Assembly (NCBI GenBank): GCA_948567375.1
Contig: OX419755.1
Span: forward strand, 2,795,001-2,859,000
Reading direction: 5' to 3'
From: Lunularia cruciata
Taxonomy: Eukaryota > Streptophyta > Marchantiopsida > Lunulariales > Lunulariaceae
DNA length: 64,000 nt
Of this stretch, positions 24,370 through 58,650 are shown in pieces (position 1 is the stretch's first letter; every line of letters starts with the position of its first letter). A model generated the notes under the pieces. It was not told where the DNA came from. It was given only the letters and a program-made list of their open reading frames with translations, and did no database searches. The translations under genes and the position numbers were made by a program.

Positions 24370-26657
24370 TAAAAGATGGGGCTAAATCAGATCAGGACAA
24401 CGTACGAAATCTGCCGTAAGGACCATACCCGCGAATATGCTCCCGTTTACCGTGAAATGAGGAGTCACGGAGGCGTGAACATTGAGAGCCCCCACTCCGT
24501 GAGAACCGGGCAGACCAGGAACGGACCGGGAACGGGTCGATTCATTCTTTGACCGGGGTATCGGTACGACCGGTCTCGGTGGAGAGAGGGGAGTGCCGGG
24601 ACCCGCCGTGGTGGATAAAAGCCTAGGTGTCCCGTTACGTGGTTTCTTCACGAATATGAATAGGTTTCTGGGACCATCCCGGGTCCGGTTTCTCACATCC
24701 GGTGCCTGCCTGCCTTCGACGAGGTCGTGGTAGCTCTGAGCCTGGGAAGGACTTACCGTCGTCGCCAGTCACCGGGACCGTCAGGTGAAGACAAGAGTCG
24801 TCCCGTCCCTCCTCCTCGCAAGTTCTTGAATTCACGGGAAGACAAAGGACAACAATCATCCCCAGGAGGAACCGACTCCAGAGAATTCTGGATCCACCAC
24901 CACCACCTCCAATCCCAAGGACTCCTCCTTTTCCCTGGGCCCGAGCAAGTCACGGAGTTCTCCAACAATCCGCAGAGTTCAGTTTGAGCCAATTTCCCCA
25001 AGAATGGTAAATAGATTTCAGGAAAGTAACATCCGAGTTGGATATGTTTAACATTACCACAAATTCAATCGGATCTGCTGATAATTTGTGTGTATGAAAA
25101 CATTTCCTCTGTTTCCTAGATAGAAAACAATTTAAACGATACATTTTCTGCGACTGAGACTGTTTTGCTACCGGAAGTTTTGTACGAACGAGGAACGACT
25201 GCCGGAAAGCCCAGAAAAGAGGCATGAGATCCTTGCTGGAGTCCTAGGCAAGGACCAGAGAGCGCATGGAGGGGAGGTAGCTGGAGGAGAGATCCTGGGA
25301 GGACTCGATCTGCTTCGCACCGTAACACAGACAGAGCTTTTGAGGGACTGGGAGAGGCTGAGCGAGTTTCGAGCGCAGAGAGAGGTGTGACTGGTCTGGT
25401 CTTGTCCGGTCTGGTGGTCTATTGTGGTCTCTGTGTACGCGAGGAGAAAGAAAGAAAGGAAGGAAGAAAGGAAGAGCAAGCACCAGCAGCAAGCTGCGTA
25501 GGCCTTGCCTTGCCTTTGCCTTGTCTTGCCTCTTGGGAAGAAGGTGAACAGAGAAGAAGGGAGGAACTCAGGGAAGGGGGGAAAAGCAAGGGAAGAAACC
25601 ATCCACACCCACAACACAACACCCACACACAGCAGACAAGGAGGGTGATGAAGTTCCATGAATGATCGGTGAGAAGACGAGTTTTTGTGGAGGAGACAGA
25701 ACTGGAATTGAGTTTGAAGGTTGGTGGTGGCGTTGGGCATGGTGTGAACAGAGAGCAACCGGGAGGTAGTAGGACAGACAACAGCAGGAGGGAGATTGGA
25801 GAGATAGAGACGAGAAAAGTGAGACACAAAGGAGTATTTTGGTGCTGTGGAGTGCTGTTGGTTGCAGGTTCGAGCCCAGGAAGCACGACGTCTATCGGAT
25901 GAGTCTTTCTCGAGAGAGAAAGAAGAGGAGGAAAGTTTGAAGGAAGAACTACACCGGACAACGACAGACGAAATTGTCCGTTGTAAGTCGTGGAGGGAAA
26001 GTAGAAGATTGCCAACGAAGGAGGACGAAGATCAAAGTCCCGTTGCGCTACGAGAGCGTGGATTCACCCGAGGATTGGAGGCGAAAATTCGGGAGGGGAG
26101 CTTGGACGAGAATCAAGAAGTGGGGAGCTGAAATAATCTGACCGCAGTACTCAATTTTGGAAAATTAAAGCTGCGAAGATCGGCCGCCGCTGAGAGCGGA
26201 GGGGGAAAGAAAATTTGTTCTAGAATCGGATTGCAAACACAGGGGCGCGCTCTCGAAGAGGTGGATTGCTCTGTAAATGTGATGGGGAGGTAGGTACGTG
26301 GAAAATCAGAGTGTGGAAGATGCCATAAAGCTCTGGAGCACGTCTGCAGTCCCTCAATTCTTCTACTTGACAGTGTGCGTCTGAGTCCTGGAGAGATTGG
26401 TGCACGACACTGCAGGCAGGGCCTCCTGGGTGTAATAGTGAGTCTCGAGAGATTGGACCAACCTTGCAGCAGGGAGGGCTTGTGGGTGTAGTAGTAGTAG
26501 TTCTCGAGAGATTGGAAGCAAAAAGTTGTGGGTGTGTAGCTGCAGCCAGCCTAGGCTGAAGGAGGACATAGGCGAAGGGTGGTGGTGAGGTTAGAAGAAG
26601 TAGTGGTGCATCGGTCGATCATCGGCTGGTGGATTGTGGCGACAGGAAGAGGGGTGG
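24370..26657 (+). promoter_or_regulatory. GC/GA-rich upstream region and probable long leader of MED26
   Basis: Composition changes sharply to GC-rich at about 24.4 kb. From about 25.38 to 25.83 kb the plus strand is strongly purine-rich, with GAAAGAAAGAAAGGAAGGAA-type repeats that fit GAGA-factor (BBR/BPC) sites of plant promoters and leaders. Many upstream ATGs with short frames occur. Three copies of GAGAGATTGG at 26391, 26447 and 26506 head imperfect repeats 56-59 bases apart. Minus-strand open frames here (up to about 220 codons) are Pro/Ser/Leu-rich images of this purine-rich composition and look like no known protein. Where transcription starts, and whether the leader holds an intron, cannot be read from the sequence. 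Confidence 0.5.
26391..26520 (+). repeat. Short imperfect repeats in the MED26 leader
   Basis: GAGAGATTGG occurs three times (26391, 26447, 26506). The last two are preceded by TCTC, and the copies are spaced by TGCAG/GGGCCT- and GGGTGTAGTAG-like segments. Confidence 0.65.
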
Positions 26658-29652
26658 ATGCACCACGAGACAGGGTCTTCGGTGTGGTCTGAGAAACACA
26701 CCATGAACCACTGGCGAAGAATTTTTGGGAATACAGGGTACGACATTTGGACGTTGATTGATAGAGCAATATGTGTGGCTGCTGCGGATTTTACTCAAGA
26801 TTTTCGATTGCGGAGAGATGCTTTGACAGAGAGGATATACACGGCCCATCTTGGCTTGGACCAGCAGGACGATGATGTTCATCCTCGTGGATCCGACAAG
26901 ACGAATGCCACCAGTGGAGTGTATGCTGGGGATGAGCAACAGGAAGAGGAAAACCAGGCTGAGCCCCAGCAGATTCTCTGCAGGGAAATTCAGGACGACG
27001 CAGCTAGAGAGATGGTCCGTGACGGTCCTCGGCACGACGAGAGGGACTTGGAGGAAGCGTTGGATGAATGGGCCAATGAGGGTTTGCAAATCAAGGAAGC
27101 TATGGACATCTTGGACAACCTGCAAGACCGCGACCAGGTCCACCATCTGCTCCCACTCGAACTTTTCCATTCCGAATGCTGGCTACGATAGACAATTTTG
27201 TCAATCCCTGAATCGGTCTGAGCCTTGCACATTGGTCACAGTTGGTTAGCAGTTTTGTCTCTGAAGTTGACGGCAGCGAGAGCGGTCACAAAGTTCCACT
27301 GCTGTATCTGGTCAAACTTGATGAGATATAGCAGTCCAAATCGCAGTCGAAATTATGCTAACTTCGCCGTGTGGTAAATTGCGATCAATGCAGCCAGAGG
27401 CAGAAGTGCTGACACAGCTCTACAGACTGCAGGCTTTGGACATGTCAATCGAGTTACTTCAGGTACAATTGAGATCGACACTCGGTTCTGCATGTGGCTT
27501 GTTGTCTCAGGTTCAGCTATTTCCCTGTGTGGCTGGGTTACCGTTATCTCCAAAGATTCTGACGATGAAAGTATTTGAGTCTAAACTCCCGTCGTACATC
27601 GCATCGTGTGCAGAAGACGTCGATTGGTGTTGTGACGAATAGCTTCCGGAAGCACCCATCGCAGCGAGTTAAAACCTTCGTGAAGGGGCTTGTCAGGTTG
27701 TTTCCTTTCCTTCTGGAATAGACACATCTTCAGTCAAAGTTTTCATTTTACACAATTACATCCTTTTGACTTAATTGTGATTCTAGTTTGGGCTGCGTTT
27801 GCCTTCTCGCTAACTCTTAAGACTCTACTCTTGCGCAGCCAGTGGAAGGGTCTTGTGGACGACTACAAGGCTCTGGTTGCTTCCACTGAACACGCAATGA
27901 AGGAAGACGAAGAACAAGAAGCTCTCGCCTTGACAAATGGTATACAAAGGCTGGCCGATAATTGAACCTCTGCTCAGTCAAGAAGTAGGTTCTGTAGGTT
28001 TGGAAGTCATTAAAGACGGAAACATTGGACCGGAAGACAGAAGTTCATTCTTGAGTTTCTCTCTTTTTCAGGAGATTACGACCCGGAAATGGTAGATCAA
28101 GAGGAGGGCTTGTGCCCTCCTCCCCTCGACGAAGGTGCCCTGCTAGCTGTACGAACGGCCTCTATTGAGATGTCTCAGGTACCAATCTTTACAGTATTGT
28201 AATTATTGGCAGATAAGTCGAGTCGTTATTATTTTATTTCTCCCGTGGCCGTGAACTGATCATGTGGCGGATATGTGCTGTGTGCTGCAGTTTTTCGACC
28301 TCATGGATGACGAACTTTGTAAGTGACCTACCATCAAGCATCACTCACATTCGCTTCTAACCAGTGTTCATGAAATTGGAAACTTGGCTGTTTATTGCTA
28401 GGGTTTGTCGAACTTGGGTGATTCAAACTTGTAGACTGATGTCTGCGTTTCTTGACAATACAGCTGCAGGATCTGGGCCAAGTCCACCAACCTCAAACAA
28501 CCTGCAAGATGATTTTGGCCGCCTTCCCAACATGAGGGCGAACAATGACGCTTCAGACCGTCGTTATCATGACGGAAGCAGTCCTGTACAAGATAATGAT
28601 TCCCGAGCATTGAAGGGTGGTGCAAAGGTCCGCAAGATTGAGAAACGCACTCCCGTCCACGATGATGATTTCCGAGCACTGAAAGGTGGTGCAAGGGTTC
28701 AAAAAGTTCACAAACGCAGTCCTGCCGAGGAGAAACGCAGTCCTGTCCAAGACAAGGACTCTCGACCATGGAAGAGCGGTGTAAAGACTCAAAAGGTCCA
28801 GAATCGTAGTCCTGTCCAAGATAATGATTCCCGAGCATACAAAAGTGATGCAAAGGTTCAAAAACCCAGTACTTTCCAAGAGAAACGCAGCCCTGTCCGC
28901 AAGCCATCAGGAAGTTCAATTACGACGGTTTCTACTGCAAAGCCAATGAATGGCAGGCCCGCCAATGGTTACTCACAACAGAAGCCCTCCAACGACTTCG
29001 TGAGGAAATCGGATGCAAGGCCTGCTGGCTTCTTGCCCATGAATTCTAGATCCAGTGGGGAAAACGGAGAACGGATGAGTTTAAGCGTATGTATTTAATC
29101 TCTTGTCTGGACTTCGAAAGGCTACATTTGGATTTCGGAGTTGTAAACCTTGACGTGACATTGTTGCCTTAGTCATAGTAATTAGCGATTGAAGGGCAAC
29201 CAAATTTTGTTTGACTTTAACCTGGGAACATTCGATGTGATTTGTTCAGAGACCAAGATCTCAAGAAGAGATCGATGTTGAGACGAAATTTGCAGTGGCT
29301 AAGAGGAAGTTACAAGAGGGATATCAGCAAGTCAATGAAGGTTAGTCTGTGACATCATAGGAGCGAAGAACGGACTCTGCATGTTGGTGCAATTTTTGAA
29401 TCGGATGACTTCGCTCGAGCTGAAAGTACTTGTTTATTTGCGTCTCGTTTTGTGTTTGACAACGAAAACGGAGCCCATCGTTTCCTCATCCACTCGTCTC
29501 TGTTTTCTTGTTTGGCAGCCAAGAAGCAGCGCACTGTTCAAGCTCTCGAATTGACAGACCTTCCAAAGGGTGGTCCGAAGTCACAAAAATTTCCACAACC
29601 TCACGGGAAACCTGGACAAAATCGTGGTGGGTGGACGAATGGTCGGAGGTAG
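26658..29652 (+). CDS. MED26: Mediator of RNA polymerase II transcription subunit 26 (plant type)
   Basis: Nine exons fit GT/AG rules and keep one frame: 26658-27137, 27394-27462, 27614-27696, 27839-27939, 28072-28178, 28291-28318, 28464-29086, 29250-29340, 29519-29652, giving 571 residues. The first in-frame ATG after the upstream stop is 26658; 26703 (MNHWRRIFG) would give 556 and starts closer to the family's usual N-terminus. Visible features: the plant MED26 start (HWRRIF...DIWTLIDRAICVAA), the TFIIS N-terminal (LW) domain over about residues 130-230 (LYRLQALDMSIELLQ, then SFRKHPSQRVKTFVKGLV, SQWKGLVDDY), the PPPLDEGALL...EMSQFFDLMDD block, a basic repeat-rich exon 7 and the C-terminal KKQRTVQALEL...WTNGRR end. 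MED26 is a nuclear Mediator subunit whose LW domain contacts elongation factors in animals. The first donor (CAG|GTCCAC) is weak; the other junctions are good. Confidence 0.93.
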
Positions 29653-46571: not shown

Positions 46572-46706
46572 TATAATACTCCAAGGACAAGAGAACTCTT
46601 CAAGAGAGATACAAGAGAGAAAACAAAAATTTCACACTCAATCCTCCGATGCCCCAAAGGAGCACCTTCTCTTTATTATATAGCCAAGGAGGATCTCCTC
46701 CAAGGA

Positions 46707-47152
46707 TATCATGCCATTTGTAGTGTTGCATCTAGATGCTTAGACATTAGAGTTCCAGTGATAGTAGTTAGAGTTATTTCAACAGTTTCTCAGAGACTAC
46801 TTTCTGACGGTCAGGTTTTGTGTTTGGGGTACTGACTTCACGGTGGGGCCCACCATCACTTTGCACTGTTTGCACCATCAAGTGTGCCGCCAGCGGGACC
46901 GTTAGGGTTCAGACCTAGCTCAAGTCCAAGGGTAATAATTTTGAAGTGCAGCTCCAGAGAGCTCACTTCTCTATGTTGAGCCTTCGAGTTCCTGGCTATG
47001 GTGGACAGAGACCGGCAAGTGTCACCTAGATTCTCTTAGCTAGAGTGGGTGTGGCTTGACTGTAATCAGTGCCCAATTGTTGGCAATTTATAGAGTGATA
47101 GATCAAGTACTGATCTGAGTTGAGTTGAGTTGAGAGTGACAATCTAATTACA
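46707..47152 (+). repeat. 5' LTR, 3' four-fifths only
   Basis: Starts TATCATGCC and ends CTAATTACA. It matches 56462-56910. The first 107 bases of the LTR (TGTGGCACTTT...) are missing here but appear as an extra piece at the element's right end. No convincing tRNA primer site follows. Confidence 0.8.
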
Positions 47153-48389
47153 TCAAAGAAGTGAAATCAAGTGTAGAAACTTTTAGTGTTGGTGGTATCT
47201 CCAAGCTCAGTGGATCATTGGTAGCTCGATTGAAGTTTAGTTTTTCCTTGGTGTGCAAAAACTCGTTGCTCGATGGAGATTTGGCAGTAAGGCAGATGGT
47301 GTGCAGAAGCGTTGGCCAATTTTTGAGCACAAAAGGAGCAAATTTTGAGCAGTGGCTATGATTTTGAGCTCAAGAGATGAAGGCAAGACCAATTTGTTGC
47401 AAGTTGGGTTCAAAAAGTAAAATTGAAAGTGGAGTTGGGAAGCTATTTTAGTGAATTTGTGATTTGGAGAAACCCATATTTTCAATTTGGCTCAAGTGAA
47501 GAGTTAGTGGAGGATTTGGCGGTCAGCCAACTTTAGGGTTTATGTCAGATTTTACATCAGATTTTGGCTGGATTTTATGTCAAATTTTGGCTAGATTTGG
47601 AGAAATTTTGCTAGTTTGGAGGACTTTCACAAGTTTGGATGAGTTTTGCCAAATTTTGGAGGAGGTTCAAAGTGGCAAGAAGAAAAGCCTCATTTGGCTG
47701 GCTGAATTTTGGCGTTTAGAGGCTTTGAGGCATAGGGTTGTGGGCTATGAGAGGCCTAGAAGGGCCAAAAGAGCCAACAAGCCAACTTGTTGGCATGAGG
47801 CTAGCTAGTTTAGAGTAGATCTTGGTCATTGGTTGGCAAACTCTGCCTTTCCTGCTAGATTGTGCGCAACAAGGTTTGATCCCTAGATCTCTTGTTCCTA
47901 GAATGGTGCCCTAGCCAATTGGTCCACCCTCACTTGTTGTCCTAGCGACTGTGCCACTATTATCTATACACTTGTAGCTTTGGCTAGGAGAAGCAGTTTG
48001 ATCCCATTCTTGGTGATCCTGGTAGCTCAGGACTTAGATACAAACTTCTCTTATGTCAAATGCCAAATGGTGGTAGAGTTAGTTCCATGTTGTTTTATGA
48101 GATGGAGAGTTTTCATTTAGATTTCTTGTGATTGGACCCCCTCCATTCTCTACTTCATGTTTGTGCACCACGTTTGTGTGAGTGCCCTGACTTTAGAGCG
48201 TTGGTACTCGGGTGTGCTCTCGGTTGTGAGGCTGGAGTGATGACCAATCAGACTATCTTTGTTTCTCTCCGGTGAGGTAGAAAGTGATGATCTGCATACT
48301 GTGAGAGTGCATGTTGTGATGGCAAGTTACAGGTTTCCCTTTCCCCTAGCGTAGTTATCTTGGTTAGAGTAAATTAGTGGGTGGTGCTT
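47153..48389 (+). other. Leader region of the methyltransferase-gypsy element
   Basis: Lies between LTR and gag. No protein block is recognised. One open frame (47542-47808) is low in complexity (repeated FGxILxxF) and probably meaningless. Holds the tRNA-like sequence listed next. Confidence 0.5.
47861..47933 (-). other. Degenerate tRNA-like sequence
   Basis: On the minus strand, TGGACCAATTGGCTAGGGC looks like an internal A box and GGGATCAAACCTTG like a B box (usual GGTTCGAAxCC), with tRNA-like spacing between them. It could be a captured tRNA or the head of a SINE. The 3' end and acceptor stem do not pair well, so it is not a working tRNA gene. Confidence 0.4.
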
Positions 48390-48812
48390 TGTAACAATAT
48401 AGAGTTTAGTGACGAAGTTAGTCGGGCTTACAAAGTAGAGAATAAGACAAAATAGCCTAGAATATTCTAGAAGCATCTAAGAAGCTTCTTGGGAAGCTTC
48501 TCAACTAGTTAACTTGCGCCTTAAGCAGGTAGCTTCTAGAAGGAAGCTTCTAGAAGCTTCTAACTAGCTTAGCTTGCACGCCAAGTAGGCGGCTTCTAGA
48601 AGGAAGCTTCTTGAGAAGCTTCCTAGTTAACTTGGCTTGCACTCCAAGAGAGCGGCTCAAGGAAGCTTCTTGAGAAGCTTCAAGGGTCTTGTATGCTACC
48701 TATAAATACCAAGGCCGAAGCTCATGCTAGGCATTTGGAGTTTTCCCTCATTCAAGTGTCTCAATGTGAGTTTCCATTCTCCTATTTTTCTCCTCGGATT
48801 TGGTCTTTTACA
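48390..48812 (+). repeat. Solo LTR of the GAAGCTTC chromovirus family
   Basis: Starts TGTAACAATAT and ends TTTTACA, like 8071-8642. It is flanked on both sides by TGCTT (48385-48389 and 48813-48817), a perfect 5-base target duplication. It inserted into the leader of the methyltransferase-gypsy element after that element arrived or in its ancestor. Confidence 0.9.
48534..48560 (+). promoter_or_regulatory. Heat-shock-element-like array in the solo LTR
   Basis: GAAgcTTCtaGAAgcTTC at 48543-48560 is four perfect alternating nGAAn units; TTCtaGAA lies just upstream at 48534-48541. This meets the heat-shock-factor binding rule. Activity is not shown. Confidence 0.55.
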
Positions 48813-48844
48813 TGCTTAGTTGGTGTTGGCACTTGGAAGGGTAC

Positions 48845-48932
48845 TTGCGGTTGCAGTTTGTAGTTTTGGTTTGCTATTGCAGTTTGCGGTTGCAGTTTGT
48901 GGTTTTGGCTTGCTGTTGCAGTTTGCGATTGC
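48845..48932 (+). repeat. Short tandem repeat before gag
   Basis: Two copies of a 39-base unit (GCGGTTGCAGTTTGT, then GTTTTGG and TTGCAGTTT) with a partial third, immediately upstream of the gag start. Confidence 0.8.
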
Positions 48933-48944
48933 GGCTACTTTGTC

Positions 48945-50480
48945 ATGATGGAGTTCTTTGGGGATTCTAGAGGAATTAGCCCTATAGTACGCAATGGGTT
49001 TACTTGGAGTGGTGCTTGGTATCAACCTGTATCTCAGGTCCCAATGAGGGAGGAGATTGACTCTGAGTTGGAGTTTGACATAGGAGCTAATTTAGTTGAG
49101 AGTGCACTTGGTGTGTCCGCATCATTGTTGTGGGACATGGACAAGATTTATGGGGCCTCTAAAGGCCCTAGGCGTTACATTGGTATAGTGGGTACCATTG
49201 AGTTGGATGACTTCATCCAAGAGTTTGATAGTTGGTGTGATCTGCAGCAGATGCGGAACCCGACTTTGTTTACACCTTTCATAGCATGGAAGGGGTTGTT
49301 TCAGCACTTGGAGGGTCCGCCAATGGATGAATACCATGAGTTTAGGAGAGCTCATTTGGAGGAGATCAAGTTATGGAGATAGTATTGGTCTCCAAACTAT
49401 GTCTCTATCACTTCAAGTTTAGTGGCCAAGAGTAGATTGGCTGTACCTACAAGTTCTAGCTCGAGTAGTGTTAGTGGAGGTGCACTAGCTGGAGATAGTG
49501 CTACTACGAGTGGAGCTACCGCTACAAGAGGTGGTGTGATATTGGGGGTTAACCCCATGGTGGAGTTCTTCCTATGTTTGAGTCAGAACTACCAAGGAGT
49601 GCGGACTGACAAGTTGAGGAGCTTGCAGGAGTTCCAGCGGAAGGCTAGAGAGAGCCTACACGAGGCATACACTCGCATGAGGTGGTTGATCAATTTCACT
49701 CAAGGAGTTACTAAGGCCTTGGCAGTCCAATTTTGGTATGAGATATTGGATAATGAGTTACAACGTAGAGTTCATGATGCTACATTGTTGTAGGCTACTT
49801 CACCTACTTTGGCAATGGTCTTTGGTTTGGCTAAGCGTATTGAGCTCAACATGGTGGAGGAGAGAGTGGTAACATTTGGATTTGGTAGGGAGACCTTATC
49901 CACAACTATGACTTCTTCTAGAGTGCAGCAAAATGTACCACGCCCAGTTGTTTTTTGAGTACAGGGTAGACAACCCAAATCCTATGGAGCGAATGGAGGG
50001 CCTAGTGGAGTTAGACCCTTACCTTCATTTTTGGGTCAGCAACAGCTAGTGAGTGGTGGTGTTGCTTGTTGGACTTGTGGTGGACTTCACCATCAGAGAG
50101 AGTGTACTCAGGGTAGTGGACCTGATACTTCTGGTGCATCACAGTTAGCACATAGGCAGTGTGAGCATTGCCATAGATTTGGTCACATTAATGACCGGTG
50201 TTTTGACCTACACTCGGAGTTACGGAGTGGTAGGGCTGCTATGACAGGTAGTATAGGAGCTCTAGTTCATGGAGGACAAGGTGGTAGAGGATCTGTACCT
50301 AGTAGGGGTGCAATACCTGCCCTTACTTCTGATACAACTATGGCTACTCGGATTGAGCAATTGGAGCAAAGATTGGCTAGTATGGCTATTGCTCAGAGGA
50401 GACCAAATTTGGGTGCTGAGGCTTCCACCTCATATGTTGGTGACAGAGATACTTTGGACTTCATGTGTGGAGCAGCATAG
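48945..50480 (+). pseudogene. gag with zinc knuckles, broken by in-frame stops
   Basis: One frame runs from the ATG at 48945 to 50480, with stops at 49380-49382 (TAG), 49791-49793 (TAG), 49957-49959 (TGA) and 50478-50480 (TAG). It holds a capsid-like segment (FIAWKGLFQHLEGPPMDEYH) and a gag domain at about 49550-49790 (LRSLQEFQRKARESLHEAYT, then RMRWLINFTQGV). At 50065-50200 are two knuckles, CWTCGGLHHQREC (CX2CX3HX4C, slightly short) and CEHCHRFGHINDRC (canonical CX2CX4HX4C). Gag packages element RNA. Two of the TAGs fall where Gln fits (WR*YWSP, LL*ATSP). Apart from the stops the frame is intact, so the damage is mostly point mutation. Confidence 0.8.
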
Positions 50481-50964
50481 GTGGATGCATCAGCAACAAT
50501 GATTAGGAGTGCAGTACGTGCTCCAGAGCCTAGAGGAGCATCAATGGAGTTGGACCCTTAGAGAGGAGAGGTTGGGAGACAGGTCAGACTTCCCTAGTTT
50601 TTCACACTTCTGAGGTATTGCAAACGACATCCATGGTTCCTAGACATCCTGGTGCAGGTGTGGTAGGTGGTGATGGAGTACATGATGGACTACCTACTAG
50701 TCAACCACCTACTACTACTAAAACTGAGTCTAACATGATGTTAGATGCGGCTTAGTTGATTATGCGGCATCCTTTGTTATCGACCACCAGTGATATGTTT
50801 ACATTGGGAGTTGACCCTGTCCAAGTGTTCCGGTTGGTTGCCACTCTGTGTGAGAGTAGGGATGATGTGGTTCCTACTACTAGAGTAGAGGTGGTTGGTA
50901 GTGGAGCTGACTTGGTTGAGGAGCATGGGATACGTTCAACGACTAGTGGTTTGCAGGCAAGCAG

Positions 50965-51420
50965 TTGCTAGCTAGACTGGAGGAGTTGCCAACTAGACCG
51001 GCCTTTGAGAGAGCACGGTTCACACCTGGTGTTGTCCTATTGGATAACCAAAGGGGGATTTTCTATTTGGTGGGACCTTCAGGGAAGGTCTATACACCAC
51101 AGAGAGTCTTGTTAAACTTTGGTGCGCAACCCTTTATGTTGGGGAAGGCGGTAGTGGTTGGTCTGGAGTTACGAAAGACCGATGTGGAGAGGTGTCCATT
51201 TCAGATCCAAACATCTCTAGGTGGTGGTTTGACATAGTACATCACACGTGGGGAGCTTGTTGTCTAGGTTCAGCTTGGTCATCCGACTAATAGCTCGGTG
51301 GTGAGAGCTCAGGCTATTGCAACAATAACTTAGTCATATGATGTGCTAGTTGGGGAAGCAATGTTATACCCCATGGGTTTAAGCATTGACTATTGGGAGG
51401 AGACAACTTCTTGTAGACCT
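50965..51420 (+). pseudogene. Aspartic protease, catalytic Asp lost
   Basis: The frame at 50965-51237 reads VLLNFGAQPFMLGKAVVVGL, then CPFQIQTSLGGG. This is the retropepsin region of gypsy elements, where LLDSGA is expected; here Asp-Ser is replaced by Asn-Phe, so the active site is gone. The continuation reads YITRGEL and YDVLVGEAMLYPMGLSIDYW after two stops, which is the second half of the fold (usual '...YDVLVG..VLYP.G...DYW'). It would cut the Gag-Pol polyprotein. Follows gag after about 480 bases of broken linker. Confidence 0.75.
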
Positions 51421-51819
51421 GATTGGCAGTCCGGTGAGGGACGGATATGTTGCCTACCAGTATGTTTTAGTAGTGGTAGTCTTGGCTCACTACAGTCAAG
51501 GACTATAGTAGCAATTGTTTTAGCTTTCAGTGGTGCAGTTACTTGGCCTGGTGACTTGTTGGAGTGGAACACCCATGCAGAGGATACTCTAGTACTAGAG
51601 GAGATCACTTGGATTTGGAGTACAAGTGGGATTGTTCTATCCACCTTGGATGTTCCATTGTGGAGTTCAGAGGAGGCATTGCAGCAGCATGCATATCGAT
51701 TGATGCAGCAGGCTTGGAGTAGAGCCTTTGTACCATCAAGGGATGAGTGTGAGGATGAGCTTCTAGAGTTGATTGCTTTGACACCTCTAGATACCACACT
51801 CATTTCTTGGCAGTATCCA

Positions 51820-52790
51820 ATAGAGGGGATATGTCTATTGGAATTGTTTGGTGGGATTAGCATCGGACTAGCTGTGGTATTACAGGCGGGTATACGAGTA
51901 CATAGGTACTTGTATGTAGAGAGAGATGAGATTACTATGTGAGTCTCTCTACATCATATGGAACACTTGGCCTATTGATATCCAGAGTTATTATTGATGT
52001 CAGCAGTTAGAGGTTACCAGAAGGCCCTACCAGTAGACATTTCCTTACTGGGAGTGCATGATCTGGAGAGACATGGGCCTATTCATTTGGTGATTTTTGG
52101 ATGGCCATGTGAGGGGCATACACATGCTAGTAGAGGCTGGGTCTTCAAGATCCTTGTTCTGGTGTGTTTTGGGAGATGTTACAGATACTACTACATCTCC
52201 AAGTTCATCAGTCCGTTTCTACAACTCACCTTTGGAGAACGTGCCTTTGATGGGTGATCCTGGCACTAGAGTGGTGGTGAGTACACATCAAGTCCATTCT
52301 TGGATGGGACTTGCTGTATTGTTAGATGCAGCCAGAGTGGGATCACGGGCTCATCGTCTTTTTCTTTGGTGGATGAACCTCTTACCCAGAGAGGTTCTAT
52401 AGCATGCTTATGATGGGATTCAGCGACTTGACCACATCCTTGTTGATGATATCTTGGATGTTGGGCGTCAGTCTAAGACAATGGTAGTGGCTGATAGGTC
52501 ACATATGGCAATGGCTAACCTAGTTGGACAACCTAGAGCCGCATTTCCCACACTCATGAGTTTCCTAGGCTCTCATGCTTTTTGAGAGGGAGGACTTGGA
52601 CTGGTTTGGGACTCACAATTATAGTAGTTGGTGGAGCCCAACATTGATGAGAGAGAGTGGGCAATGGGTGTTTTTGCATTGGTTTTACTGCTATTCCAGC
52701 AATGTTAGAGGCATCAAGGCGTCAGGTGTTAGGTAAGGCTATGGACCTGAACTATTTGACCTGGATTGTGAGCCTTGGCTTGGCAGAGTA
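51820..52790 (+). pseudogene. Cytosine-5 DNA methyltransferase domain inside gypsy pol
   Basis: Blocks appear in order. Motif I is at about 51832-51870 (CLLELFGGISIGLAVVLQAG), with an acidic motif II at about 51905-51935 (YVERDE). Motif IV with catalytic cysteine is at 52090-52125 (VIFGWPCEGHTHA, Cys codon 52108-52110). Then SLFWCVLGDV, and motif VI at 52235-52243 (ENV in LENVPLMGD). A motif VIII-like ARVGSRAHRLFLWWMNLLP is at about 52330-52390. Motif IX/X-like blocks (RAAFPTLMSFLGS, then EREWAMG and a LGKAMDLN-like end) run to about 52780. There are stops at 51943 and 51976, a frameshift between motifs IV and VI at about 52135-52150, and more stops after 52400. The protein would transfer methyl groups from S-adenosylmethionine to DNA cytosines. 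It lies between protease and RT, where gypsy elements normally have nothing. Confidence 0.8.
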
Positions 52791-52830
52791 GTGTAGGATG
52801 CGCTTGATAAGCGTCACCACTTGAACACTT

Positions 52831-53168
52831 GTGAGCCCTGTGCCTATCGAGACAATTCAAGCACATGTTGGGGGTGATGGACCGAGTGGACATGGTATTC
52901 TTGGGACACAGCCAGTAGATACTAGGGAGAACAATCTATTTGGAGTCCATCTAGGTGAGCATGGGCTACTTGGATTACACCCTTGGTCCACTTGGGATGC
53001 AACTAGAGGACGTGTGGAGCTTGCAGCCATGGTGGAGGGAGTTTTTCACACAAAGGTTGGGACCTCTAGTGGTCGGGAGCATGACACTATTGCTCCCAAG
53101 GGTCCAGTGTAGTAGCCAGTCAATACGTCTTCCACTCCTACTACAGTTATAGAGGATACTTGGGAGCC
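52831..53168 (+). other. Linker between methyltransferase and RT
   Basis: An open frame (52831-53112) rich in Gly, His and Thr without recognised motifs. It ends at a TAG and probably belonged to the polyprotein. Confidence 0.4.
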
Positions 53169-54235
53169 AGATCTTGGACCCAAGCTTACTAGAGAGGAAA
53201 GACGGAGGGTTTGGAGGTTCTTGAGGAGCCACACGAGTTGTTTTGCCTTTAGTATGAAGGATTTGGGTGCTCTAAAGGGACTTGGTATATGGATTGAGCT
53301 GACTAGCGATACACCAGTTTTCCGACGTCCTTATCGATATAGTGAGATGGAGAGGACATTGATTCAGAGCCGGAGTAGTGACCTTTTTGAGGTTGGTTTG
53401 GTGGAGATTTCACATGGAGAGTATACATCAATGATAGTGATGCCAGCCAAAAAGGATATGCATGGCAACTACACAGATAGGCAGATGTGTGGAGATTACC
53501 ATCCTATCAACCGACAGACTAGGGCTGATGGGTATGCCATGGCTACACCAGAGGAGACTTTTGATGCGATTAGGCATGCAAAGGTCTTTAGTACTTTGGA
53601 TCTTTGAGAGGGATATCATTAGTTGCCGATCAAGGAGGAGGATAAATCCAAGACAACATTATGGGCTATTGATCCTCACGGCAAGGATGTGTTACATCAG
53701 TGGAGGTCCTTACCATTTGGGTTAAAGAATGCTCTTGCTGAGTTCTAGAGGGTCATGGATAGGATCCTAGTTGGATTGGATTTTGCTCGGTGCTATATTG
53801 ATGACATTTTGGTCTATAGTACTATTGTGGAGGAGCATGAGAGATAGTTGTTGGAGGTGTTTGAGAGGTTGAGATCTCATGGACTCAAATTACATCCTAG
53901 GAAGTGTAGGTTCTTCCATAAGTAGGTTGAGTATTTGGGTCACACTATCTACTCTGGAGGACTTGGTGTTCAGTTGACCAAGGTGGAAGCTATTGCATGT
54001 ATTCCTCGGCCTACAGATGTGAACAGAGTGCGAGCATTCCTTGGGTTGGCAAACTTCTATCACCACTATGTTAGAGGATTTAGTGCCATTGCCAAGGCCT
54101 TGACAAAGCTGAACAAGCTCACACAAGAGTGGTGTTGGGGAGATGAGCAAGAGAGCTTTTGTAGAGCCCAAGGAGAGGTTGACATCTGCTCCTATTTTGA
54201 GGAGACCAATAAGAGGACGACCATTTTAGGTTCAT
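53169..54235 (+). pseudogene. Gypsy reverse transcriptase, many TAG stops
   Basis: The frame from about 53180 reads LTREERRRVWRFLRSHTSCF, then RPYRYSEMERTLI and the RT blocks: SMIVMPAKKD, CGDYHPINRQT, FSTLDL, LPFGLKNALAEF, CYIDDILVYS (YxDD at about 53793-53804), LKLHPRKCRFF and YLGH. RNase H connection blocks FLGLANFYHHYVRGFSAIAK follow. Stops in this frame: TGA 53605, TAG 53620, TAG 53746, TAG 53845, TAG 53923. Each TAG sits where the family has Gln (GYH*LP, AEF*RV, ER*LL, HK*VEYLG); the TGA sits where Arg (CGA) is usual. The catalytic aspartates remain. A frameshift at about 54140-54230 separates it from RNase H. Confidence 0.9.
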
Positions 54236-54640
54236 ACTGATTGGAGTATGTTGGGGCTTGGAGCGGTGCTCACCCAACATGATGATGAGGAGAAGGAGTT
54301 TGTGGTGGCCTATGCTAGTCACTCCAACAATTCAGTGGAGGCAAAGTATAGTTCATATGAGGGAGATTGCTTGGCAGCAGTTTGGGCAGTAGCACATTTC
54401 CGATATTACCTATTTGTCAACCCCTTCACTCTCATCATTGATCATTAGCCACTGAAGTAGTTGATGGAGTCAAACAAGCTTTCAAGGAAGCTTGCACAAT
54501 GGGCTCTGATTTTAGAGGAGTATGATTTCACGGTTGTTCATAGACTTGGAGTGGTGAACCATGATGCAAATGGGTTGAGTAGAAACCCATGTCCCAGCCA
54601 GCAGGATCAGACCGGAACACATGGCATGGTGAGACAAATG
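54236..54640 (+). pseudogene. RNase H domain
   Basis: DWSMLGLGAVLTQHD at 54238-54282 begins the gypsy RNase H (first catalytic Asp present; 'DAS..G.GAVL.Q'). Then EFVVAYASHSNNSVEAKYSS and EGDCLAAVWAVAHFRYYLF (Glu present), TLIIDH followed by TAG at 54446 and 54458 (both expected Gln in 'TDHQPLKQLM'), then RKLAQWALILEEYDFTVVHR and NHDANGLSRNP. It would remove the RNA template strand. Only two stops break it. Confidence 0.9.
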
Positions 54641-54894
54641 AGGAGATGGTGCTAGGTTGGCATGCATTGGCCTTTCTGTATATATTTTCAAAGGCTTTGG
54701 TGGTATCTCTCTTAGCATATTCAGGAGGAGTTATTGAGGTCATAGATCCAGAGAGTAAAGATATTGGTACAGTTCAACAAGACATTCATGATGATGTCTT
54801 AGTGATGGACTATCTTTGCATTGGTGTTGTGGGTGGCACAGTTGGGGCCAAGGAGAGAGACCGAGTTCTTCAGCGAGCTTGACGGTTCAGATTG

Positions 54895-56050
54895 GAGGGC
54901 GGACACCTTTTGCGTGTATGGGAGGATGGTAGAGTGCGAGTAGTACCACTTCTATTTAGAGACCACAGTTGGTCCGTCAGGTTCATGAGGAGCTAGGACA
55001 TTTTGGAGTAAAGCATACATATAGCTTACTCCAGAGTCATTATTGGTGGCGCGGTATGCAGACCGAGGTACAATAGTTTGTTGCTAGGTGTGTGGTTTGT
55101 GACCAAGTTAGAGCATCATTCAATGCTCCTATGCCACAGTTAAACCCATTACCTATCATGGGATTGGGTTACCGTTGGAGTTTGGACTTCATTGGACCTT
55201 TATCGCTGACTATGAGACATCATCGGTATGTTTTGGTGATGGTGGAGCACTTCTCCAAGTGGATTGAGTTGGTGGTACTTCCTAACAAGTCTAGTGAAGG
55301 GACAACTTACTTGTTCCTGGATCAAGGTCTTAGTCATTTTGGTGCACCAGCCAAGGTTTTGACTGATCAAGGTATAGAGTTCTTGGGGGAGTTTCAGGTC
55401 TTGTGTGACAAGGCTTTGATTGATCACCGTACTACCTCCCGAGCTCACCCTGAGGCAAATGGCTTAGTAGAGAGAGTGGTTTAGACGGTGAAGAGAGGAT
55501 TGCAAAAGTATGGTTTGCAAAGAGGCCACTTGGGAGATTGGGATCTCCAATTACCTTGGTTGGCCATGGGCTATCGTTTCAGCTGGCAAGCCTCTTTAGC
55601 ATCCTTCTCTTTGTACTTTCTACTCTATGGATGAGATCTAGATTTACCTACAGCCATTTGTCAAGATGCTTCTGTAGTTTTGGACTTGGATGACCCCGAT
55701 GTATGGATGAGTGCATGTTCTCAATGGGCAGAGATCCTTTGGAGAGTGATGCCGATGGCCTTTGAGAACTTGGCGATTGCTCAGCATAGAGATACTTTAT
55801 GCTATGCTACCATTTGAGGAGGAGGTTATAGACCCTCAATCCGTCAATTTCATTCAAGAGACTATGTATATTTACAGCAGACAACACCGACGATACTTGA
55901 TGTTTTGACAGTCCGCACTATCTTGAGAGTGCGTGAGGTTTTGCCATCTGGAGTCCTTGTGTTAGAAGGACATGATGGTGTTGTTTGGAAAGATCATGTG
56001 CGCAATTGTGCGCCATGCCACCTCCCAAACATTGATGGTACTATGGACCC
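54895..56050 (+). pseudogene. Gypsy integrase with intact D-D-E residues
   Basis: The HHCC zinc finger is at about 54980-55110 (HEELGHFGVKHTYSLL...CVVCDQ; a TAG at 55074 replaces Gln). The catalytic core is at 55160-55484: SLDFIGPL (Asp), VLTDQGIEFLGEF (Asp) and AHPEANGLVERVV (Glu), ending at a TAG (55482) where Gln is expected in N-Q-T. A C-terminal SH3-like segment follows at 55905-56035 (TILRVREVLPSGVLVLEGHD, then DHVRNCAPCHLPN). The middle (55485-55900) is split by stops but still reads as integrase (LPWLAMGYRFSWQASLASFS). It joins element DNA to the chromosome. Confidence 0.9.
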
Positions 56051-56078
56051 AAGCTTGGCACTTGTATGTGCAGGCTTG

Positions 56079-56175
56079 AGGTGTATGTTATGTGGCTCTT
56101 TTGGTGGAGCTGTTACTATGTTAGTGTGTGATAGCTATTTGAGAGGATGGCATAAGGTATGTATGACTCCTCCTA
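56079..56175 (+). pseudogene. PHD-finger-like zinc motif after integrase
   Basis: In frame with the integrase tail, residues CMLCGSFGGAVTMLVCDSYL then RGWHKVCMTPP fit the PHD pattern C-x2-C-x(n)-C-D-x-C-x4-G-W-H-x2-C-x-x-P. The fourth zinc ligand is Tyr (TAT) instead of Cys (TGT), a single G-to-A change. PHD fingers bind histone H3 tails, so the domain could have guided integration or read chromatin. It lies where other gypsy elements carry a chromodomain. The final Cys pair (W-x-C-x2-C) is not visible: the frame ends at a TGA 30 bases later. Confidence 0.65.
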
Positions 56176-56342
56176 GATGTACTTGACCTATAGCTAGTTC
56201 ATTCTTTATATGGTATAGATTGCAGACAGGCAACTAACAATGGGGCTCCATAGCACCGGCCTCCTGATCTTTGCCCATTATAGGGTATACCATATACTTA
56301 GAGTAGATGGCTATCTAGAGTTAGAGCAACCTAACCGCCAGC

Positions 56343-56354
56343 TAGGGGGGCGAT
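56343..56354 (+). promoter_or_regulatory. Polypurine tract
   Basis: TAGGGGGGCGAT immediately precedes TGTGGCACTTT and so marks the true LTR start at 56355. Confidence 0.7.
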
Positions 56355-56910
56355 TGTGGCACTTTAGAATCTATGTATGCCTTATGTGTGAGTTGTGCTT
56401 CTATAGTGTATGATGTTGATAGTGATGTATGTTTTGTAGCAATGTATATACACATGACATCTATCATGCCATTTGTATTGTTGCATCTAGATGCTCAAAC
56501 ACTGGAGTTCCAAAGATAGTAGTTAGAGTTATTTTAGCAGTTTCTCAAAGACTACTTTCTGATGGTCAGATTTTGTGTTTGGGGTACTGACTTCATGATG
56601 GGGCCCACCGTCACTTTGCACCGTTTGCACCATCGAGTGTGCCATCATTAGGACCGTTAGGGTTCAGACCTAGCTCAAGTCCAGGGGGTATAATTTTGAA
56701 GTGCAGCTCCAGAGAGCTCACTTCTCTGATGTTGAGCCTTCGAGTTCTTGGCTATGGTGGACAGAGGTCGGCAAGTGTCACCTGGATTTTCTTAGCTAGA
56801 GTGGATGTGGCTTGACTGTAATCGGTGCCTAGTTGTTGGCAGTTTATAGAGTGACAAATCAAGTATTGATCTGAGTTGAGTTGAGTTGAGAGTGGTAAAA
56901 ATCTGATTAT
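56355..56910 (+). repeat. Complete 3' LTR
   Basis: Starts TGTGGCACTTT after the polypurine tract. The end, ATCTGATTAT, aligns with ATCTAATTACA of the 5' copy. The last two-thirds match 46707-47152. Confidence 0.8.
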
Positions 56911-57013
56911 TGTGGCACTTTAGAGTCTATGTATGACTTATGTGTGAGTTGTGCTTCTATAGTGTATGATGTTGACAACAATATATGTTGTGTAGCAATG
57001 TATATACGCACGA
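56911..57013 (+). repeat. Extra partial LTR (first ~103 bases)
   Basis: TGTGGCACTTTAGAGTCTAT begins a second LTR directly after the complete one; it stops at TATATACGCACGA where the target duplication starts. It matches 56355-56461. Confidence 0.85.
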
Positions 57014-57645
57014 CAAGGAAGCTCCACCATAGGATTAGGTACATGGATAGGTGACATGTCTGCAAGCTCCACCCTTAGATTACTTGCTTGGATGGGTGAC
57101 ATATCGGTCCTGGTCCCATCTGGTTGGTCAAATAGGCTTTGACCGGAAGGAATCATTTAGGGAATCTTCTTATAGGAATCTCAAAATCATGTGGGTGAGA
57201 TACCATTGGAAAGCTTTCAAAGAGAAAAAGCAGGGAGAGGGAAGGACAACCTATCCTCTCTAGGGAGGGAGGGGGAATCCACACATTTTTCAGGCCTAAT
57301 CTATCCGTTTAGGCCTTCAAAATTGCCTCTAAAGTTTTTAGGCCTATTTTGGCTTTTGCCCTATTAGTATAAGTGCTATTTTGGTGAAAACTCTTTCTGG
57401 TCTATGTTCTCCATCATGTGTAACATTCTTCTAGATGTCACCACCCCAAGTTTCACCTCTAGATCATATGCCTAGCTATTGATTCTAAAGTTTCCAAGCA
57501 CGTTTCAATTTCTGGCCTATTAGTAGAAGTACTCTTTTGGTGATACCTCTAGCTTATCTACTTAGTCCCTCGTGTATAACATTCTTACAAATGTTACCAA
57601 ACCAAATTTCATCTCTAGATCATCTATCTAGCTATGGGTATTACA

Positions 57646-57990: not shown

Positions 57991-58505
57991 GAGAGTTTAG
58001 TTTTAGTTAAGTGCACCTTTGAGTATATGTTAGGTAACCCTATGCACATATTTGTCAATTTTGAGATTTATATACATTGTTTTGTTATTGCAAACTCCTA
58101 GATAACTCTTCTTTGTATTCATGGTATTGTTTGTTGGATTGATATGGTGTGACAAATTGTGTATAGGTGCATCTCATGATGTTAGACAGTCTAGTCTACA
58201 TGCGCACCTTGATGATCATACTCCTCAAAGATAGCAAGGAGAGAGCGAAAGGATATAGAGTTCAAGAGATATGGTTTATGAGAGAGTTTTCCATTACTAT
58301 AGGACTATTGGAGAAGACTAGGAGGGAAGTACATGAGGCGATTGCTCAGCTAGATCCTCTCAGGGTAGCATATGAGGATGTTTGCCAATAGGCTAAAGAG
58401 TGGTTAGAGGAAAATATTTTACATTATCCTTGGAGGTTTCTCCTAAAGGAGGTAAGGACTCAATAAGATCATGATGTTGACCTCTATGGTGTGATGGGGG
58501 CTTAG

Positions 58506-58650
58506 AGAAATGCTAGTTTAGTTGATTTGGGAGCTCAGACCCAGATCAAGGCTTTGTTTACATATACAAGGGCTCAAAAAAATGCTAGTTTAGTTTACAT
58601 GGGGGTTTAGACCCAAAGCAAGGCTTTGTTTACATATATAGGGACTTAGA
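58506..58650 (+). repeat. Tandem duplication, about 72-base unit
   Basis: Two units share AAATGCTAGTTTAGTT, AGACCCA, CAAGGCTTTGTTTACATATA and GGGCT/GGGACT. Confidence 0.8.

What the first reader, a model, noticed from the sequence alone, without database searches (positions are those of the whole stretch)
51820..52790. A Ty3/gypsy retrotransposon that carries a cytosine-5 DNA methyltransferase between protease and RT
Seen: motif I (LELFGGIS), acidic motif II, catalytic Pro-Cys (GWPCEGH, Cys codon 52108-52110), ENV (52235-52243), a motif VIII-like SRAHR and a terminal block, all in order between the protease and RT of one element. Known: C5 methyltransferases share these motifs; ordinary gypsy elements have none. 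I recall reports of methyltransferases captured by retrotransposons in dinoflagellates and a charophyte alga, but cannot check them. Inference: an element lineage in this plant used its own methyltransferase, perhaps to mimic host silencing marks, to escape restriction or to mark its DNA copy.
Basis: partly seen in the sequence, partly recalled or inferred. Interest (0 to 1): 0.93.

Follow-up and report, generated by a model that had tools for sequence, protein, structure and literature searches.

The report
Retrotransposon family carrying a DNA methyltransferase
A decayed jumping gene in this plant genome belongs to a many-copy family that carries its own DNA-methylating enzyme and a histone-reading finger; related elements occur in liverworts, a moss and green algae, so parasites of plant genomes appear to have kept a piece of the silencing machinery for a very long time.

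The parts
46703..46706 (+). left target-site duplication AGGA
   Evidence: equals 57016-57019; L011 shows TAGC on both sides
46707..47142 (+). repeat A1, left end of the element (TATCATGCC.., TGTCACGCC.. in younger copies); no B beside it
   Evidence: 90.8% identical to A2
48864..50480 (+). Gag region in broken frames, zinc knuckle CWTCGGLHHQREC near 50060
   Evidence: by motif; the Gag part of L010 gave Retrotrans_gag only below its cut-off (E 0.015)
50947..51480 (+). aspartic protease region (LLNFGAQPFMLG here, LLDSGAQPLMLG in L010)
   Evidence: by motif; no Pfam hit for this piece in L010; Closterium relative P0045 gives gag-asp_proteas E 7.1e-6, 27.0 bits against a cut-off of 28.2
51826..52789 (+). 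C5-cytosine methyltransferase domain, DNMT3-like, broken by stops and a change of frame in this copy
52108..52110 (+). codon of the catalytic cysteine (GWPCEGH here, GWPCQGH in L010)
   Evidence: Cys in 153 of 154 retro-MTase rows with a letter there
53110..53118 (+). junction stop and next six bases: TAG TAGCCA here, TAG CAGCCA in 23 of 26 copies (STOP-CAR-YYA)
   Evidence: rule from PMC2754532 (passage)
53290..54102 (+). reverse transcriptase (YIDD), broken frames
   Evidence: RVT_1 E 3.9e-32 in L014
54130..54612 (+). RNase H
   Evidence: 94.2% DNA identity to L010; RT_RNaseH E 9.3e-36 in L014
54910..55640 (+). integrase (zinc-binding part and rve core)
   Evidence: rve E 1.1e-12 in window piece 55077-55484; Integrase_H2C2 1.6e-18 in L014
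56082..56186 (+). remnant of a C-terminal PHD finger, shortened and with a zinc ligand lost
   Evidence: window ORF 55818-56186 against L010; intact in L014, PF00628 E 3.2e-11
56342..56354 (+). polypurine-tract-like CTAGGGGGGCGAT directly before B1
   Evidence: exact in 18 of 25 copies reaching it, one or two changes in the other 7
56355..56459 (+). repeat B1 (TGTGGCAC..GACA)
56462..56906 (+). repeat A2, joined to B1 by two bases (GACA-GC-TGTC in younger copies)
56911..57015 (+). repeat B2, right end of the element (..CACGACA)
57016..57019 (+). right target-site duplication AGGA

Best explanation
Shown: the window holds a dead copy of a multi-copy gypsy-type family. By domain hits and motifs its ORF1 is Gag-protease-methyltransferase and its ORF2 RT-RNase H-integrase-PHD, in one frame across a conserved UAG. 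Inferred: ribosomes mostly stop at the UAG, so Gag-PR-MTase is the main product and enters particles in structural amounts, while a small share reads through to give RT and integrase. Inside the particle or pre-integration complex the DNMT3-like enzyme methylates the fresh double-stranded cDNA (probably at CG), so that the new copy arrives already carrying the host's mark; the PHD finger behind the integrase, of a type I recall as reading H3 unmethylated at K4, leads insertion towards quiet chromatin. The copy is then neither met as naked foreign DNA nor placed where it kills the host. Host enzymes later keep CG and CHG methylation on old copies, whose decay shows it. The repeat layout further suggests a circular intermediate opened by the integrase at the GACAGCTGTC palindrome inside an LTR. 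Identity of domain and family: about 0.95. The confidence given is for the self-methylation mechanism.
For: Family and domain order. Catalytic constraint over 163 rows of 157 proteins (rows with a letter there): Cys 153 of 154, motif VI Glu 156 of 156, motif VIII Arg 153 of 156 and 155 of 155. Against 7 of the 15 Marchantia proteins the median identity is MTase 69% (7), PR 55% (7), linker 49% (6), Gag core 63% (5), rest of Gag 48% (5), RT 74% (2), RNase H 78% (2). Closest to DNMT3A/3B by sequence (8.5e-12) and by fold. UAG in 26 of 26 copies, CAGCCA after it in 23 of 26; elsewhere in the PR, MT, RT, RH and INT segments no stop is shared by more than 9 of 25 copies. CAR YYA 3' of UAG is essential for TMV readthrough (PMC2754532, passage). 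PHD: PF00628 3.2e-11; PDB neighbours include CHD4, KDM5B, PHF21A, ATXR5 and AIRE. Window decay: C to T at CG 38 of 169, CHG 71 of 320, CHH 33 of 1074 sites. Precedent: two SymbioDIRS-Dnmt3 domains methylated CG in yeast (PMC5890265).
Against: No activity, expression or methylome data here. The one gypsy-borne enzyme tested before, KnitGypsy-Dnmt3, gave no methylation in yeast, which its authors call inconclusive (PMC5890265). Within the family the amino-acid/silent ratio of shared variants is 0.54 for the MTase, above RT (0.34), PR (0.37) and RNase H (0.32), below INT (0.61) and below private MTase variants (0.73); counts are small. Readthrough is inferred from sequence; two Marchantia proteins, P0006 and P0014, run on from MTase into RT, which may be gene-model effects. 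The PHD was seen intact in this genome's copies and in second-layout relatives, not in the Marchantia, Sphagnum or Closterium proteins in hand, which end before it. Ordinary gypsy elements do without an MTase (recalled).
Confidence: 0.45

Rival explanations
1. The enzyme acts on chromatin, not on cDNA: carried by the particle to the insertion site, or made in trans, it seeds silencing of new and old copies, so the element restrains itself and spares its host.
For: Reader plus writer in one element resembles the ADD-plus-MTase logic of animal DNMT3; a place on the Gag side would mean much enzyme. PMC5890265 names slowed transposition as one possibility.
Against: Selection for self-restraint is weak in multi-copy parasites; host CG and CHG methylation is enough to explain the decay seen.
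Confidence: 0.2
2. The enzyme methylates RNA (the element's own RNA or a primer tRNA), as DNMT2 does.
For: PMC5890265 raises this for the LINE-borne enzymes; the domain lies beside Gag.
Against: Sequence and fold are closest to DNMT3A/3B, with DNMT2 far behind (1g55 E 0.047 against 8.5e-12).
Confidence: 0.08
3. The domain has become a structural, non-catalytic part of ORF1.
For: The motif IV Pro is lost in many relatives (Glu in 80, Pro in 61 of 154 rows with a letter).
Against: Catalytic Cys, motif VI Glu and motif VIII Arg are all but invariant; L010 keeps Pro-Cys-Gln.
Confidence: 0.07
4. Evolution: streptophyte and chlorophyte elements captured their enzymes separately, rather than descending from one ancient capture (the 2018 paper speaks of an independent acquisition in the K. 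nitens lineage).
For: Two layouts exist (MTase before RT; MTase between RNase H and integrase). The K. nitens protein was not in hand, and where the retro-MTases join the DNMT tree is not resolved.
Against: 27 sampled retro-MTases are one clade against 27 other enzymes (100/100); an RT-RNase H tree of 21 rows splits the two layouts the same way (100/99); this family and the second layout share integrase and PHD.
Confidence: 0.25
5. A host gene fragment or chance insertion lies in this one copy.
For: Gypsy elements normally have no MTase (recalled).
Against: Present in all 25 other copies read and in frame with the Gag-protease region in L010 and L011; found in other genera.
Confidence: 0.01

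Closest known systems
KnitGypsy-Dnmt3 of Klebsormidium nitens (PMC5890265; parts 1-4 of 7 of the text and search passages read)
   Same: Gypsy domain composition, DNMT3-like enzyme inside the polyprotein, repeats described as laid out like those of DIRS (Fig. 4 legend)
   Different: Described for one alga and as inside Pol. The terms PHD and readthrough do not occur in its main text. Its sequence was not in hand, so direct kinship is untested.
SymbioDIRS-Dnmt3 and SymbioLINE-Dnmt of Symbiodinium (PMC5890265)
   Same: retrotransposons carrying C5 methyltransferases; the DIRS ones show de novo CG methylation in yeast
   Different: other retrotransposon classes (tyrosine recombinase or LINE endonuclease), other hosts
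Plant chromoviruses (recalled; two papers seen as listings)
   Same: gypsy-type elements with a chromatin-reading module behind the integrase
   Different: PHD finger in that place; no chromodomain hit in the pieces scanned
DNMT3A / DNMT3B catalytic domain
   Different: about 25% identical; Pro-Cys-Gln where DNMT3A has Pro-Cys-Asn; no ADD or PWWP in the pieces scanned
Gypsy-type elements with a gag/pol stop, e.g. rice RIRE2 (cited as readthrough candidate in PMC2754532, passage)
   Same: stop codon between two reading frames
   Different: here protease and MTase lie before the stop; RIRE2 itself was not compared

Membership tests
Ty3/gypsy (by domain order) | order RT - RNase H - rve integrase | tested here: met
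   Pfam on pieces of L014; rve in the window piece
Ty3/gypsy (by domain order) | RT groups with Ty3/gypsy RTs in a tree | not tested
   no MTase-free gypsy RT was in hand; the RT tree holds relatives only
ordinary LTR retrotransposon | identical terminal repeats at both ends | tested here: not met
   A alone in 5 of 5 left ends, B-A-B in 4 of 4 right ends in hand; so it is called gypsy-type by its domains, not filed as an ordinary LTR element
ordinary LTR retrotransposon | short target-site duplication | tested here: met
   4 bp in 2 of 2 copies with both ends in hand
ordinary LTR retrotransposon | tRNA primer-binding site after the left repeat | tested here: inconclusive
   sequence after A1 is CATCAGAGAAGTG..; no plain TGG-type site seen by eye
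KnitGypsy-Dnmt3 | DNMT3-like domain inside a Gypsy polyprotein, several copies | tested here: met
KnitGypsy-Dnmt3 | DIRS-like A-coding-B-A-B repeats | tested here: met
   definition from PMC5890265, legends of Fig. 1 and 4
KnitGypsy-Dnmt3 | sequence kinship with the K. nitens protein | not tested
   no protein named Klebsormidium in the lists (48 shown; 120 of 233 shown)
DIRS | tyrosine recombinase | tested here: not met
   pieces scanned give rve/H2C2 integrase and no phage-type integrase
DNMT3 | closest solved enzymes by sequence and fold are DNMT3 | tested here: met
DNMT3 | branches within eukaryotic DNMT3 in a tree | tested here: inconclusive
   retro clade on a long branch; only one sure host DNMT3 row
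DNMT3 | de novo methyltransferase activity | not testable with these tools
   needs an assay
TMV-type leaky stop | UAG followed by CARYYA with an open frame on both sides | tested here: met
   UAG 26 of 26, CAGCCA 23 of 26; in 19 of 25 copies a frame of 100 aa or more opens right after it in phase
TMV-type leaky stop | measured readthrough | not testable with these tools
   needs a reporter

The most novel reading that the evidence does not exclude
A gypsy-type clade of the whole green lineage has carried a working DNMT3-class methyltransferase plus a PHD histone reader since before chlorophytes and streptophytes parted. In bryophytes it makes the enzyme at Gag level by a leaky UAG, methylates its own cDNA, and integrates from a circle opened at a palindrome inside the LTR. 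It would be a parasite version of the host's reader-writer silencing machine, and its integrated form a circular permutation of its cDNA.
Probability: 0.22. Interest if true: 0.88.

Novelty: new variant of a known kind. Interest (0 to 1): 0.64.

Why it matters
Methylation is what hosts use to silence such elements, so keeping a methylating enzyme needs an explanation. The 2018 report had one gypsy case in one alga. The data here suggest an old, widespread lineage in which the enzyme is kept between hosts nearly as well as the polymerase, sits on the Gag side of a leaky stop, and travels (in this family) with a chromatin reader. Marchantia polymorpha, a standard laboratory liverwort, carries close relatives of the enzyme (69% median identity), so the question of what an element gains from methylating DNA becomes directly testable. 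The permuted repeats also raise the question whether a retroviral-type integrase can use a circle.

Tried and rejected
Pfam on broken window pieces gave no MTase hit; I went to other copies instead of mending this one. One IMG/VR scan with alignment A1 (two peptide patterns): 42 stretches matched, 13 loci confirmed, all with partial matches, the best-scoring 38% over 140 residues; their gene content was not examined. No viral home was found in that scan. Within-family amino-acid/silent counts are too weak to stand alone. A simple random choice between the two palindromes of a 2-LTR circle is disfavoured: 25 of 26 copies show B-xx-A at the right and none the mirror form A-B-A-coding-B; in L009/L016 neither was found in the stretch held. 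Why only one would be cut is unexplained. Host name: 566 Mb in 74 contigs; the eight contigs with matches are 60-85 Mb each and hold 558 Mb, and the copies are close to Marchantia ones, so a liverwort is likely; Lunularia cruciata (Ty3/Gypsy bursts, 580-Mb assembly as I read the passages of PMC9985172) is a guess. Total copy number: the 123 scored PF00145 matches are a lower bound and include host genes (L001, L002); L003 and L004 were not examined. Primer-binding site: not resolved. The tree's free-standing rows came from a search with the host DNMT3, so other MTase families are missing, and 27 of 157 retro proteins were used. ORF1 end in relatives: of the 14 first-layout proteins that have the ERERAMGF block near their end, ten stop 121-173 residues behind it, P0005 108, P0008 61, P0009 205, P0004 206; P0006 and P0014 run into RT; so the conserved stop is shown for this genome only. 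Literature: all ten searches. No title or abstract start listed reports MTase-bearing gypsy elements in bryophytes or chlorophytes, or a PHD finger or leaky stop in them; PMC12344493 (section 5 and passages read) names only the cases of 2018. Passages only were read of PMC9985172, PMC9033089, PMC9516144, PMC12730594, PMC9998398, PMC9246332, PMC6453930 and PMC2754532. Subscription papers, bioRxiv, Repbase and supplementary files were not searchable.

Full report
WHAT IS THERE. The window is base 2795001-2859000 of contig C1 of a 566-Mb plant assembly. From 46707 to 57015 lies one retrotransposon, flanked by the 4-bp duplication AGGA. Its frames are broken. In order: repeat A1, a Gag region with a CWTCG zinc knuckle, a protease region, the methyltransferase (51826-52789), UAG (53110-53112), RT, RNase H, integrase, a PHD remnant, a polypurine-like tract, then repeats B1-A2-B2.

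IS IT REAL. The three broken window pieces over the domain give no PF00145 hit, so I looked at other copies. A PF00145 search of the same genome scored 123 matches among 2161 candidates, most over profile positions 48-120 and many inside long open frames. I read 25 further copies (L010-L034; L016 is the copy also held as L006 and L009). All carry the domain ahead of RT; 24 of them are 94-98% identical to the reference L010 in the MTase, the window copy 88.8%; the protease segment was found upstream in 24 of the 26, not in L022 and L027. L010 and L011 have one uninterrupted ORF1 of 1428 aa; the MTase part of L010 hits PF00145 at E 2.5e-8, over the curated cut-off. Neither a chance insertion nor a host gene fragment fits.

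THE STOP. In all 26 copies, window included (23 by pattern; L011, L015 and L023), ORF1 ends at TAG right after the MTase tail. The next six bases are CAGCCA in 23 of 26 (L022 CAGCAA, L024 CAGCTT, window TAGCCA). In 19 of the 25 other copies a frame of 100 aa or more opens directly behind it in the same phase. Other in-frame stops in the PR, MT, RT, RH and INT segments are scattered, no position being shared by more than 9 of 25 copies, and most come from CAG or CGA by C-to-T. CAR YYA after UAG is the motif essential for readthrough in TMV (PMC2754532, passage). So the MTase should belong to the abundant Gag-PR product and the polymerase to the readthrough product. This is inference from sequence. 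In relatives the picture is mixed: ten of 14 first-layout proteins end 121-173 residues behind the ERERAMGF block, four at other distances, and P0006 and P0014 of Marchantia run on into RT.

THE PHD FINGER. ORF2 ends in a PHD finger (PF00628 E 3.2e-11 in L014). Nearest solved PHDs include CHD4, KMT2D, PHF12, KDM5B, DPF3, PHF21A, ATXR5, AIRE and UHRF1. I recall that several of these read histone H3 unmethylated at K4. The window keeps a shortened remnant. The finger stands where chromoviruses have a chromodomain (recalled), so I take it for a targeting module. It also occurs in second-layout relatives; the Marchantia, Sphagnum and Closterium proteins in hand end before it.

THE REPEATS. The left end is A alone (5 of 5 left ends in hand: L009, L010, L011, L013, window). 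The right side is B1, two bases, A2 in 25 of 26 copies (in L009/L016 neither was found), and B2 follows in 4 of 4 right ends in hand (L011, L012, L014, window). The B1-A2 join reads ACAGCTGTCA in 14 of 25 and differs by one or two bases in the other 11; GACAGCTGTC is a perfect palindrome. B1 is preceded by CTAGGGGGGCGAT (exact in 18 of 25), where an LTR would start. If the LTR is B-GC-A, reverse transcription should give B-A-coding-B-A; the integrated A-coding-B-A-B is its circular permutation. A circle cut at the palindrome by the integrase would give this and the 4-bp duplications (2 of 2). Against the simplest form of the model: the mirror cut was never seen. The 2018 paper describes a DIRS-like repeat layout for the Klebsormidium gypsy element too.

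HOW WIDE. A search with the MTase part of L010 gave 48 proteins (8000 candidates scored): 15 named Marchantia polymorpha, 1 Sphagnum fallax, 1 Closterium, 31 without a species name. A search with P0027 gave 233, of which 120 are listed; five of the 120 carry names I can assign to chlorophytes (three Haematococcus lacustris, one Monoraphidium neglectum, one Chrzof1, which I take to be Chromochloris). Two main layouts exist: MTase before RT (this family, Marchantia, Sphagnum, Closterium, and P0048) and MTase between RNase H and integrase (P0024, P0027, P0043, the chlorophyte P0118 and others). In a tree of 27 chosen retro-MTases with one host DNMT3, 19 free-standing enzymes and 7 from the viral collection, the retro rows are one clade (100/100) and the second layout a group within it (97/93). 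An RT-RNase H tree of 21 rows splits the layouts the same way (100/99). One capture and one move of the domain is the simplest reading; K. nitens itself could not be placed.

SELECTION AND DECAY. Against 7 of the 15 Marchantia proteins the MTase is better kept (median 69%) than protease (55%), linker (49%), Gag core (63%, five proteins) or the rest of Gag (48%, five), and a little less than RT (74%, two) and RNase H (78%, two). Within the family the signal is weak: the shared-variant ratio of the MTase (0.54) lies above RT (0.34), PR (0.37) and RNase H (0.32) and below INT (0.61). The window copy has lost C at 22% of CG and 22% of CHG sites but 3% of CHH sites, judged against L010 at positions where at least 80% of the other copies agree with it. 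That is the print expected of host CG and CHG methylation; in the moss P. patens MET and CMT make these marks (PMC6453930, passages). A1 and A2 of the window are 90.8% identical, against 98-99% in the parts that can be compared in L010, L013 and L014, so the window copy is old and others are young.

VERDICT. A real, decayed member of a known kind, retrotransposons with captured DNMTs, in a variant whose parts (DNMT3-like enzyme on the Gag side of a leaky UAG, PHD finger) and whose spread over green plants I did not find described in the ten searches listed; the repeat layout was described for the 2018 case. What the enzyme does for the element is open; self-methylation of the new cDNA is my best guess at 0.45.

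Noticed in passing
P0060, P0118, P0045 and others (80 of 154 rows with a letter): Motif IV of many relatives reads Glu-Cys-Gln instead of Pro-Cys (P0060 and P0118 of the second layout, P0045 of Closterium); also Asp 6, Ser 5, Ala 2. The Pro is otherwise a hallmark of C5 methyltransferases (recalled), yet Cys, motif VI Glu and motif VIII Arg stay.
   Followed up: partly
C-termini of P0027 (1651-1880), P0050, P0052, P0053, P0055, P0129: Behind the PHD finger some second-layout polyproteins carry another conserved domain (DPWAGTGT..NDLN..SPWF; pattern in 8 of 157 proteins) that looks like a second SAM-dependent methyltransferase. AlphaFold pLDDT 82, pTM 0.85; Foldseek matches are weak, METTL5 first at E 6.7e-4. 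Not in the window's family.
   Followed up: partly
L001 and L002: The same genome has what look like a host DNMT3 gene (exons at L001) and a DRM-like gene (L002); named by eye from the motifs.
   Followed up: partly
window 26604-27191 and 28361-29098: Two long plus-strand open frames that look like host coding sequence; not identified.
   Followed up: no
window 48493-48612 and 58498-58641: Two short tandem duplications (60-nt and 72-nt units), one inside the element, one outside it.
   Followed up: no
L023 5765-5885: This copy has a B1 repeat with an internal duplication.
   Followed up: no
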